A DNA stretch of 64,000 bases from Cryphonectria parasitica EP155 (taxonomy: Eukaryota > Ascomycota > Sordariomycetes > Diaporthales > Cryphonectriaceae), in NCBI RefSeq assembly GCF_011745365.1, contig NW_024468913.1, positions 3,906,001-3,970,000 on the forward strand. The letters are read 5' to 3'. The first letter of the stretch is position 1; every line of letters begins with the position of its first letter. Position numbers and translations under genes: made by a program. Shown here piece after piece: positions 2,486-5,464 of the stretch. The notes under the pieces were generated by a model. That model made no database searches. It saw only the letters and a list, made by a program, of their open reading frames with translations, and was not told the DNA's origin.

Positions 2486-4015
2486 CTCGGGGGACGTTCA
2501 GGCGCCCGAGGACCAGGTGATAAGAGAACCACGTATCCTATATGTCGTGTAGTCTTGACGCTGGAGGAAGAGGAAGAAGTAAATCAACAACAATCACAAC
2601 AACAACAAACGCTGGACACAGAAAGAAAGACTCAAGAAAGGAATTAAGGGCGGAGGAAAAGACGGCGGCGACGCGGAAAGTCAAGCAGAACCCCTCGGGC
2701 CGTGTCTAGGGAGCGCGATCTGGCTAGAGAAAGGGAGGCAGCCCCTTGGCAAATACCGCGTCCATTCATCTTATTATTTCAGCTGCAAGGGGAGCTTCCC
2801 AGCAGAGATGCACAGCTGGCCCCGATATTTTAATCCAGACTCCGGCCTGTGCCTGGGAAAGGCATAGCAACAAGGTCTCGAAGAGGCGCCGTCAGGGACT
2901 GGCGTCCCACCATGATGCCTCGGGGAACCCTTGAAGCTGTCACGGGCCGGTCACTGGTGCAGATCAGCCAATACCGCTGGCCCCAGCGTACCATACATAG
3001 TATGAATGAATGAATGAATGATATGTTCTGGGCGTAGGGGGGAGCGAGTCAGGGTTCAAGACTTGCTCGTGATTTCTGTGAGCTTTTTTCTGCGTTTGGG
3101 GGAGGGCGCCACTATTCAGCCCATCCAAAAGAGTCTAGAAGACGCCACCAGCCTGATTAGCACGTGGCTAGCACTGGGCTACGCTGCACCGTGGACGCTT
3201 GGCGGGAGCAGGGCGTCCGCTGAGTCCAGAGCTGAACAAGACTGGCACCCCGGAAATTTATGCCTGGTTCCATGCAGCAGTCGGTCTTCTGGCCGTGACT
3301 TTGTACTATGGCATGTAGGTATAGCCGACAAAGCGGCTGAATCTGTAGATCCTGAGGCTTGGCATGACCATATCTAGTCGTCTCGATCCTCGATAGGGGC
3401 TTTTATGGATGAGACTTAGTTTTCATGCCGACGAAGAAGACTGGAGAAGGATGATTCAGCCCGAAAAGGGAAATCCGAACATAGCAATGGAAGAAAGAAA
3501 AAAAGGACAGAAAAAATAGAGGCAGTACCCGAATTATTCCCCGTAGTCCTCGAAAAACACTGACTCATTTGTCTTCTCATTCCGGAGTCTTGAAATGCGA
3601 GGGTGTTCCTCGTGAAAGCTCAACAATCGCGAGCAAAGACAGTAGGCGAGCTGTATGCAGAAGATAGGGAAAAGGGGGGCAGGGGAAAGTGCTAAACATC
3701 CAAGCCAAGTAGCCTCACTGTGATTCGTCAAGTGAATATTCTTCCCTTCCTCAACTGGAATGGACTTGACGGGAGGCTACTTCCCCTTCTACACTTGCTA
3801 AGCCTGTTGTGCTTGCCAACATTTTCTATGCTCTCCAATACTGGTAACTGCGATGGGCTGCAGATAAGGTAGACAAATAGACAATACTGAAAAGAGGAAT
3901 AGTTTCGAGAATTGATCTGTCAAAACCACAACCATCATCATTGTCATCTCAATTTCTGCCCAGCAATACCATTATCAACTCAATTTATTCCTATTGCTAC
4001 TGACCGTATGTCATA
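2486..4015. other. Divergent promoter region, no gene seen
   Basis: This lies upstream of both the mannosyltransferase (-) and the RTA1-like gene (+). An open frame of about 119 codons (3018-3377) has no family features and poor composition. A short (TGAA)n tract lies near 3002-3020. I see no gene. Confidence 0.5.
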
Positions 4016-5464
4016 ATGGACCCATCCCGCTCCGACTCCGAGAACATGAACTTCCTCTCGAGGATCTGCGCCGTGGCACCGCAGGCGCATCCAAATTGCC
4101 AGACAGGATTCTACGGATACAAACTGAGCCACAATGCCAACGGCGCCTTCATGGTGCTATTCTCTATTGTTGCAGTTGCTTACATCTGCATGTACGCCTG
4201 GAAGAGGGTTGGCGCCGACTTCACTGGCTTCATGCTACTAGGTTTGTTGGCAGAGGCTCTCGGATACGGTGCTCGGGTGTAGAGCACTACCGATCAGTTC
4301 GAGGACGATGCCTTCTTCATGCAGATCTGCTGTTTGACCATTGGCCCGGCGTTCATGGCCGCGGCTATCTATCTTTGTATGCGGAGGATTGTTTTTTGTT
4401 TCGGCGAGGAGAACTCCCGCATCTCGTCCAGATGGTTCACCAGAATTGTAAGTCGTGATGCTCCCGCTGCCCAGGTTGCGTGCCGTCCGAAATCTGTGTG
4501 GCTGAACGGTCACAGTTCATCCCATGCGACATCGTCTCCCTCGTCCTGCAGGCCACGGGTGGCGGTCTTTCAGCTGTCGCATACAAGAACGGCGGTCATG
4601 TGTCTACCGGCAACAATATAAGTGAGCCAATTCCTCCTCACCGTCTCCACGTTGATATTATCTGGTCAATGAAACGAAATTGACCGATGCCTGGCTTGCC
4701 ATCCAGTGATTGCCGGCCTGGCCTTCCAAGTTTTCACAATGGCCACCTTCATCTGCAGCGCGGTCGACTTCACGCTGCGCACATACTTGCGCTACAAGCT
4801 GCAGGGCCAAGAAGCCCTCGAGCAGGCCGTGTCAAACACGGCTGTCCGCAGCTCGACCCCCTTCCGCCTCTTCCTCGCGGCCCTGATCTTTGCCACGCTG
4901 TGCATCTTCACCCGGTGCTGTTTCCGTGTTGCGGAACTCAGCGGAGGGTGGACGGGTCCGTTAATGAAGAAACAGGTACTGTTCATCGTATTCGAGAGCA
5001 CCATGGTCTTCTTGGCGAGCGTGGCACTGGTCGTCTTCCATCCCGGGTGGTGTTTCAAGATAATGCTGGAGGGGGAGGGCGGCCTGGGCCTCAGCCGGCT
5101 CAGACAGTTCAGGCCGTTCCGGGGAAATAGACCGCGAGCCAATGCTGTTTCTGAAGGGAGCGTCGATGATGGCGTGTTACAGCGGCAGATCTCGGGGCAG
5201 ATGCAGGGTGGCGAGGACAAAACCGAGGCTCAGGCCCCGACGACCTCACGCGTCCAAGTTCCTGCTCCACGTGCGAACACCACCTCCACTCATGGAGCCA
5301 ACAGAGTCACGTTGCAGCCCAACATTCTGCTCAGTGAGACTCTCGCAGAGGATAATACAGCCTCGGGGGCTGAACATAACACACCTGTCAGGTCTGCGGT
5401 TGCCAATGCGGTGGTCTTTCCAAAGAATAGACCGAGTGCCACTGCCATGCCTTGTGCAGGCTAA
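4016..5464 (+). CDS. RTA1-family membrane protein, frame interrupted by one in-frame TAG
   Basis: Three exons: 4016-4447, 4516-4621 and 4707-5464. Introns are 4448-4515 (GTAAGT...CACAG) and 4622-4706 (GTGAGC...TCCAG). Together they make 432 codons in one frame, except that codon 89 is TAG (4280-4282). Both sides of the stop read as RTA1 family (7 membrane segments, lipid-translocating/drug-resistance related proteins): TM1 about 42-62; TM2 about 70-88, ending in Gly-Tyr-Gly-Ala-Arg; TM3 about 99-122; TM4 about 145-165; TM5 after Met-Ile-Ala-Gly-Leu-Ala-Phe; then TM6 and TM7; and a disordered tail of about 100 residues. No frameshift, deletion or plausible intron removes the stop; the only GT...AG pair spanning it would be 41 nt and would delete the conserved TM2 end. 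The intact splice sites and downstream frame argue against old decay. Options are recent pseudogene, sequencing error, readthrough or mRNA editing. The family call is firm; the functional state is unknown. Confidence 0.82.
4269..4287 (+). other. Hairpin presenting the in-frame TAG adenosine in its loop
   Basis: Bases 4269-4274 (GTGCTC) pair perfectly with 4282-4287 (GAGCAC). The 7-nt loop is 4275-4281, and its last base, A4281, is the A of the TAG. A few further pairs are possible outside the stem with small internal loops. In Fusarium and Neurospora, A-to-I edited adenosines are enriched in hairpin loops with U at -1. Whether this one is edited is inference. Confidence 0.6.

What the first reader, a model, noticed from the sequence alone, without database searches (positions are those of the whole stretch)
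4269..4287. In-frame TAG of an RTA1-like gene sits in a perfect hairpin loop: candidate A-to-I edited pseudo-stop
The gene is otherwise intact (three exons, good splice sites, seven membrane segments) but codon 89 is TAG. Bases 4269-4274 pair with 4282-4287 in a perfect 6-bp stem, and A4281 is the last base of the 7-nt loop, preceded by U and followed by G. Established knowledge: in Fusarium graminearum, Neurospora crassa and Sordaria macrospora, A-to-I editing of mRNA happens mainly in sexual tissue, prefers UA(G) adenosines in hairpin loops, and rewrites premature UAG stops to UGG (Trp). Editing here would restore a full 431-residue transporter only in edited tissue. This is inference; recent pseudogenisation is the alternative.
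Basis: partly seen in the sequence, partly recalled or inferred. Interest (0 to 1): 0.75.

Follow-up and report, generated by a model that had tools for sequence, protein, structure and literature searches.

The report
Possible RNA-edited stop in fungal transporter
A membrane-protein gene of the chestnut blight fungus is intact except for one internal stop codon that sits in the kind of RNA hairpin that related fungi edit during sexual reproduction, so it may be switched on only in edited tissue, but a recently broken gene is almost as likely.

Summary
The window is Cryphonectria parasitica EP155 (Sordariomycetes, Diaporthales). A three-exon RTA1-family gene (4016-4447, 4516-4621, 4707-5464) is open except for TAG at codon 89 (4280-4282). 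A4281 is the last base of a 7-nt loop closed by a perfect 6-bp stem. Such a stem is uncommon around a TAG (14 of 1020 in the window), though 340 of 1020 TAGs fold with the A in some hairpin loop.

Sequence predictions of premature-stop-correction editing are met: UAG, U at -1, G at +1 and +3, a loop, an editing-class lineage. Trp is the commonest residue at the site in the gene's own subfamily (6 of 11), though rare in the wider family (3 of 140). There is no other lesion, no clear rate acceleration and no RIP signature. The NCBI model skips the stop with a 93-nt in-frame "intron" over conserved coding sequence, as reported for edited PUK1-like Fusarium genes.

Against: the two nearest relatives carry Gln and Gly, no relative is seen with the stop, other genes of this genome with stops look like pseudogenes, and no RNA was available. 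Verdict: plausible candidate, about even odds with a recent null allele; a new member of a known kind if true.

The parts
4016..4447 (+). Exon 1 of RTA1-family gene, with in-frame TAG at codon 89
   Evidence: translation and splice donor GTAAGT; relatives read exon 1 on through the same place
4280..4282 (+). In-frame TAG (codon 89); A4281 preceded by T, followed by G, with G at +3
4269..4287 (+). Hairpin: 6-bp stem, 7-nt loop, A4281 last loop base
4448..4515 (+). Intron 1 (68 nt, GTAAGT...CACAG)
4516..4621 (+). Exon 2
   Evidence: matches relatives
4622..4706 (+). Intron 2 (85 nt, GTGAGC...CCAG)
4707..5464 (+). Exon 3 and end of the reading frame
   Evidence: matches P0126 and others
4192..4284 (+). 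93-nt in-frame 'intron' that I infer from comparing the NCBI model P0001 (402 aa) with the DNA; coding sequence in relatives, so most likely an annotation artefact that skips the stop (real splicing not excluded)
   Evidence: homologous residues encoded in P0045, P0142 and others

Best explanation
An RTA1-like seven-helix membrane protein gene carries a premature UAG that is a substrate for A-to-I editing by the fungal Tad2-Tad3-Ame1 type machinery. Unedited tissue makes an 88-residue, two-helix fragment; in perithecia the adenosine at 4281, at the 3' end of a hairpin loop with U at -1, would be deaminated, the codon read as Trp, and the 431-residue protein made. Shown here: gene structure, stop, hairpin, lineage, Trp as the commonest residue at the site in the subfamily, no further decay. 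Inferred: that the transcript is edited, when, and what the protein does (lipid or sphingoid-base export, from names given to relatives only).
For: Stop is UAG with U at -1 and G at +1 and +3, in a hairpin loop; published preferences are U at -1, A/G at +1 and +3 (PMC11156358, parts 1 and 2 of 3 read) and hairpin loops (62.4% of sites; PMC4817773, passages), against 340 of 1020 TAGs here. Own subfamily: 11 relatives split from the 21 others in the tree with support 100; Trp at the site in 6 of 11, in two separate parts of the tree. Trp to TAG is 8 of 145 weighted one-step routes to a stop over the gene's 430 sense codons, so a TAG at a Trp-rich site is a modest coincidence under random nonsense mutation. 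No other lesion in 430 codons. Exon 3, unique changes window: P0126 with four outgroups 6:6, 7:10, 9:10, 11:14; tip branch 0.216 against 0.267 for P0142 and 0.478 for P0045. No RIP-like composition and no second DNA copy. Automated annotation skips the stop by an intron, as reported for PUK1 and at least 69 other edited genes (PMC4817773). Lineage: Sordariomycetes, where editing is called a common feature (PMC11087585, passages); a DUF726 (Ame1-type) gene with Met-Ser where a second copy keeps the Lys-Asn described as ancestral is present.
Against: No RNA data. No relative seen with the stop. Nearest relatives have Gln (Coniella P0045) and Gly (P0142), and Gln to TAG is the commonest one-step route to a stop in this gene (30 of 145). 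Site is variable: Met 93, Leu 27, Gln 5, not covered 5, Ile 3, Trp 3, Ala 2, Ser 1, Val 1 of 140, so Trp is not required. A third of the TAGs here fold into hairpin loops, and two of four folds keep only four of the six pairs. One of the relative-rate counts before the stop leans the other way (13:8 against P0142 with P0143 as outgroup). A4281 is the last loop base, whereas tRNA A34 is the third of seven (recalled). The Ame1 residues are not a clean match: at the spacing of the Fusarium protein the four copies read Ala-Met, Ala-Lys, Ser-Leu, Ala-Leu, and the Met-Ser reading needs a shift of one.
Confidence: 0.5

Rival explanations
1. Recent nonsense mutation: a young pseudogene, or a null allele of EP155 or of part of the species, in one member of a large family.
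For: No relative seen with the stop; the two nearest relatives have Gln and Gly, and Gln to TAG is the commonest one-step route (30 of 145). The genome gives 23 RTA1 matches, counted exon by exon, so redundancy is possible. Kinase-like genes with in-frame stops of all three kinds occur in this genome: L057 (TAG), L060 (TAG and TGA), L074 (TGA), L075 (TAA). Absence of further decay is what a young null shows too.
Against: Coincidence of UAG, -1/+1/+3 bases, 6-bp hairpin and a Trp-rich site; no clear sign of relaxed evolution.
Confidence: 0.42
2. The stop is removed by splicing: the 93-nt in-frame intron 4192-4284 of the NCBI model is real, giving a protein without the segment just before the stop.
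For: P0001 is annotated so. FgBUD14 shows both editing and alternative splicing around such a stop (PMC11156358).
Against: The 31 codons are coding sequence in relatives; donor GTACGC and acceptor GAG look weak (consensus recalled); P0001 lacks the start of the Pfam domain (profile 17 onward) and a predicted membrane segment (65-83). Annotators are reported to insert such introns to avoid edited stops (PMC4817773).
Confidence: 0.05
3. Sequencing or assembly error at one base.
For: A single base is involved, and one search listed one protein from one strain.
Against: No other defect in the gene. Read depth could not be checked.
Confidence: 0.03

Closest known systems
PUK1 and about 70 other premature-stop-correction genes of Fusarium graminearum (PMC4817773, passages; PMC11156358, parts 1 and 2 of 3)
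   Same: In-frame UAG in an otherwise intact gene, U at -1, preference for hairpin loops, false intron in automated annotation, Trp after editing
   Different: There editing was seen in RNA and tested genetically; here no RNA. Different gene family and order (Diaporthales)
AMD1 of F. graminearum, an MFS-domain protein with UAG editing (PMC5496914, start of abstract in search listing only)
   Same: Transporter-type membrane protein with a premature UAG
   Different: MFS, not RTA1; editing demonstrated
RTA1-like proteins (PF04479)
   Same: Pfam match E 3.6e-68 after the stop, seven predicted membrane segments
   Different: Reading frame interrupted; function of this copy unknown
CHE1 of F. graminearum (PMC11169179, passages) and OLD-ZAO (PMC12754623, passages)
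   Same: UAG correction by A-to-I editing, there in hyphae or on virus infection
   Different: CHE1 and ZAO are transcription factors; OLD lies beside its target, whereas the only adenosine-deaminase-domain (PF02137) match of this genome lies about 97 kb from this gene (that OLD has such a domain is recalled)

Membership tests
Premature-stop-correction edited gene (PUK1-like) | In-frame UAG in an otherwise complete coding sequence | tested here: met
Premature-stop-correction edited gene (PUK1-like) | U at -1, purine at +1 and +3 | tested here: met
   preferences from PMC11156358
Premature-stop-correction edited gene (PUK1-like) | Adenosine in a stable hairpin loop | tested here: met
   14 of 1020 TAGs by strict stem, 340 of 1020 by any hairpin loop
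Premature-stop-correction edited gene (PUK1-like) | Trp at the site in relatives | tested here: inconclusive
   6 of 11 in own subfamily, but Gln and Gly in the nearest two; 3 of 140 in the wider set
Premature-stop-correction edited gene (PUK1-like) | Stop conserved in close relatives (not always so in known cases) | tested here: inconclusive
   no shared stop seen among the relatives that cover the site, but only protein records and no congener were available
Premature-stop-correction edited gene (PUK1-like) | Continued protein constraint after the stop | tested here: met
   relative rates; a very recent null would also pass
Premature-stop-correction edited gene (PUK1-like) | A-to-G in cDNA with A in DNA, in perithecia | not testable with these tools
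   no RNA reads
Premature-stop-correction edited gene (PUK1-like) | Organism has the editing machinery (Tad2/Tad3 with Sordariomycete-type Ame1) | tested here: inconclusive
   Sordariomycetes; cytidine/adenosine-deaminase-domain and DUF726 genes present, Tad2 and Tad3 not identified among them; key Ame1 residues Met-Ser only with a one-residue shift
RTA1-like family PF04479 | Profile match over the curated cut-off and seven membrane segments | tested here: met
   229.6 bits against 24 for the part after the stop; hydropathy
RIP-mutated gene | High TpA/ApT, low (CpA+TpG)/(ApC+GpT), duplicated sequence | tested here: not met
   0.47 and 1.39, window 0.65 and 1.28; DNA search found only itself

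The most novel reading that the evidence does not exclude
The RTA1-like membrane protein of the chestnut blight fungus is encoded behind a stop that only A-to-I editing in fruiting bodies removes, making it a sexual-stage-only protein and the first such site noticed in the order Diaporthales.
Probability: 0.45. Interest if true: 0.55.

Novelty: new member of a known kind. Interest (0 to 1): 0.4.

Why it matters
If true, it extends premature-stop-correction editing to Diaporthales, an order for which the one search made (A-to-I with Diaporthales) found no paper in the held library, gives one precise base to test in a fungus much used for mycovirus work (recalled), and warns that annotated introns over in-frame UAGs in this genome may be false. 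If false, it is a useful example of how a recent null allele can mimic the sequence hallmarks of editing.

Tried and rejected
RIP as the source of the stop: composition is not RIP-like and there is no second copy. Splice removal: kept as a minor rival. Neighbouring deaminase as in OLD-ZAO: the one PF02137 match is about 97 kb away. PUK1 orthologue as positive control: a kinase-domain search (125 of 224 candidates scored, 140 matches) and a scan of 39 kinase loci (30 returned, 9 fetched) for a stop in the Trp-Trp motif did not identify it; inconclusive. RID as a control: no TAG inside any of the 6 methylase-domain matches (one has a TAA); inconclusive, since I did not know the place of the published stop. 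MFS search: only 9 of 458 candidates scored, of no use. A small survey of in-frame stops in kinase, p450 and RTA1 matches: of five other TAG cases folded, the A was in a hairpin loop in two (L042, L056) and not in three (L057, L060, L072); further TAGs at the edge of a match were taken for intron ends (for example L063, L071, L073, L077, L078) or not examined, so nothing can be said on enrichment. The search for related loci was not used: its collections are viral, prokaryotic or, for metagenomes, capped at 0.

Limits of the protein searches: one search listed 120 of 450 proteins over the threshold, from 7997 capped candidates; one search listed 27, one search listed 13. The 5 of 140 rows without a residue at the site are pieces that do not cover it.

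Literature, what was seen: PMC11156358 (outline, parts 1 and 2 of 3); PMC4817773, PMC11087585, PMC11169179, PMC5381528, PMC7306014, PMC12754623 (passages found by term); PMC5496914 (listing only). Searches (Cryphonectria with editing terms) listed 5, 3 and 2 papers, none by title about editing in Cryphonectria and none read for it; one search (RTA1, RNA editing, perithecia) listed none; one search (Cryphonectria parasitica, RTA1) listed two, not read, neither on this gene by title.

Full report
What is there. The window is contig 5, 3906001-3970000, of a 43.8 Mb genome; the gene's own public protein names it Cryphonectria parasitica EP155 (P0001), class Sordariomycetes, order Diaporthales. At 4016-5464 lies a three-exon gene of the RTA1 family (PF04479, E 3.6e-68 for the part after the stop). 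The reading frame of 431 codons is open except for TAG at codon 89. Two predicted membrane segments lie before the stop (three windows, two overlapping) and five after it.

The hairpin. GTGCTC at 4269-4274 pairs with GAGCAC at 4282-4287 around GGGTGTA; A4281 is the last loop base. A Watson-Crick stem of six or more around the A of a TAG occurs at 14 of 1020 TAGs of the window and in 141 of 20000 flank shuffles. With 30 nt each side, the length used in the Fusarium paper, 340 of 1020 TAGs have the A in a hairpin loop, and 31 of 1020 match or exceed this site in stem, loop and energy. All six pairs form in the folds of 15 and 100 nt each side, the inner four in those of 30 and 50 nt. Published edited sites are in hairpin loops in 62.4% of cases (PMC4817773, passages), so the mere loop gives a likelihood ratio of about two; the strong short hairpin gives somewhat more.

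What relatives carry. Among the 140 proteins other than P0001 listed (one search showed 120 of 450), the aligned residue is Met 93, Leu 27, Gln 5, Ile 3, Trp 3, Ala 2, Ser 1, Val 1, and 5 are pieces that do not cover the site. A search with exon-1 pieces kept apart found 13 more. The tree of exon 1 used 32 relatives: P0045, all 13 and 18 that I chose from the others; it has 123 columns, with the stop column left out. The window gene and 11 relatives are split from the other 21 with support 100; in these 11 the residue is Trp 6, Gly 1, Gln 1, Arg 1, Leu 1, Thr 1. The nearest, P0142 (63% identity; its contig has the same length, 9167 bases, as that of the exon-3 piece P0126, so probably the same gene), has Gly; Coniella lustricola P0045 (59%), also Diaporthales, has Gln. 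Inner branches among these have weak support (39 and 78). So the subfamily's commonest residue is the one that editing would write, but the closest relatives differ and the site tolerates many residues. Protein records could show a shared stop only indirectly, as a frame cut short or a model that skips the site; none was seen.

Routes to the stop. Over the gene's 430 sense codons, weighted with transitions double, Trp to TAG makes 8 of 145 one-step routes to a stop and Gln to TAG 30 of 145, the commonest. If the codon was Trp before, the coincidence favours editing; if it was Gln, as in Coniella, it does not.

Is the gene decaying? Unique changes in exon 3, window against P0126, are 6:6, 7:10, 9:10 and 11:14 with four outgroups; in the piece before the stop against P0142 they are 6:11, 13:8, 5:10, and against P0045 5:10 and 5:9; in the rest of exon 1 against P0142 they are 5:3, 5:4, 4:4. 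The window's tip branch (0.216) is shorter than those of P0142 (0.267) and P0045 (0.478); some more densely sampled relatives have shorter ones. GC3 is 0.69 before and 0.70 after the stop. RIP indices are 0.47 and 1.39, and no second copy was found. The stop is therefore young, or harmless because it is edited; these tests cannot separate the two.

Annotation. P0001 (402 aa) avoids the stop by an in-frame 93-nt intron, 4192-4284 (inferred). It removes residues that relatives encode. The Fusarium paper describes false introns over UAGs in PUK1 and at least 69 other genes (PMC4817773). A pseudogene would provoke the same artefact, so this is consistent, not decisive.

Machinery. Editing is called a common feature of Sordariomycetes and depends on Tad2-Tad3 and Ame1, a DUF726 protein whose Lys-Asn to Met-Val change matters (PMC11087585, passages). 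This genome has at least four DUF726 genes (7 matches). At the corresponding place one (contig 3) reads Met-Ser and another (contig 5) Lys-Asn, after a shift of one residue from the spacing in the Fusarium protein. That is suggestive only.

Weighing. For editing: UAG rather than the other stops, flanking bases, hairpin, Trp-rich site, no clear decay. Against: no shared stop seen, near relatives without Trp, apparent pseudogenes with stops elsewhere in this genome, a large family, no RNA. Known edited sites are often not shared between species (PMC5381528, passages), so the lack of a shared stop is weak evidence. I put editing at about 0.5, a recent null allele at about 0.42, and the rest on splicing or error.

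Noticed in passing
L056 (G000:C2:281900-283500, minus strand): Kinase-domain gene with one in-frame TAG whose A lies in an 8-nt loop closed by a 9-bp stem (-19.4 kcal/mol); second editing candidate, or a very short intron, or a pseudogene.
   Followed up: partly
L042 (G000:C4:4565587-4566285, plus strand): Aurora-like kinase copy (name from a recalled motif) with one in-frame TAG in KQV*REIEIQ; A in a 6-nt loop with 5-bp stem.
   Followed up: partly
L057, L060, L074, L075: Kinase-like genes with in-frame stops (TAG; TAG and TGA; TGA; TAA), probably pseudogenes.
   Followed up: partly
4008-4018: A two-codon upstream frame (ATG TCA TAA, 4008-4016) ends on the A of the main ATG (4016-4018), a TAATG overlap that could damp translation.
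   Followed up: no
P0001, C-terminus (window about 5409-5460): The NCBI model also ends differently from the simple exon-3 frame, apparently through a further predicted intron.
   Followed up: no
L009, L010 (DUF726 genes on contigs 3 and 5): Ame1-type pair: one copy Met-Ser, the other Lys-Asn near the Tad3 contact site.
   Followed up: partly
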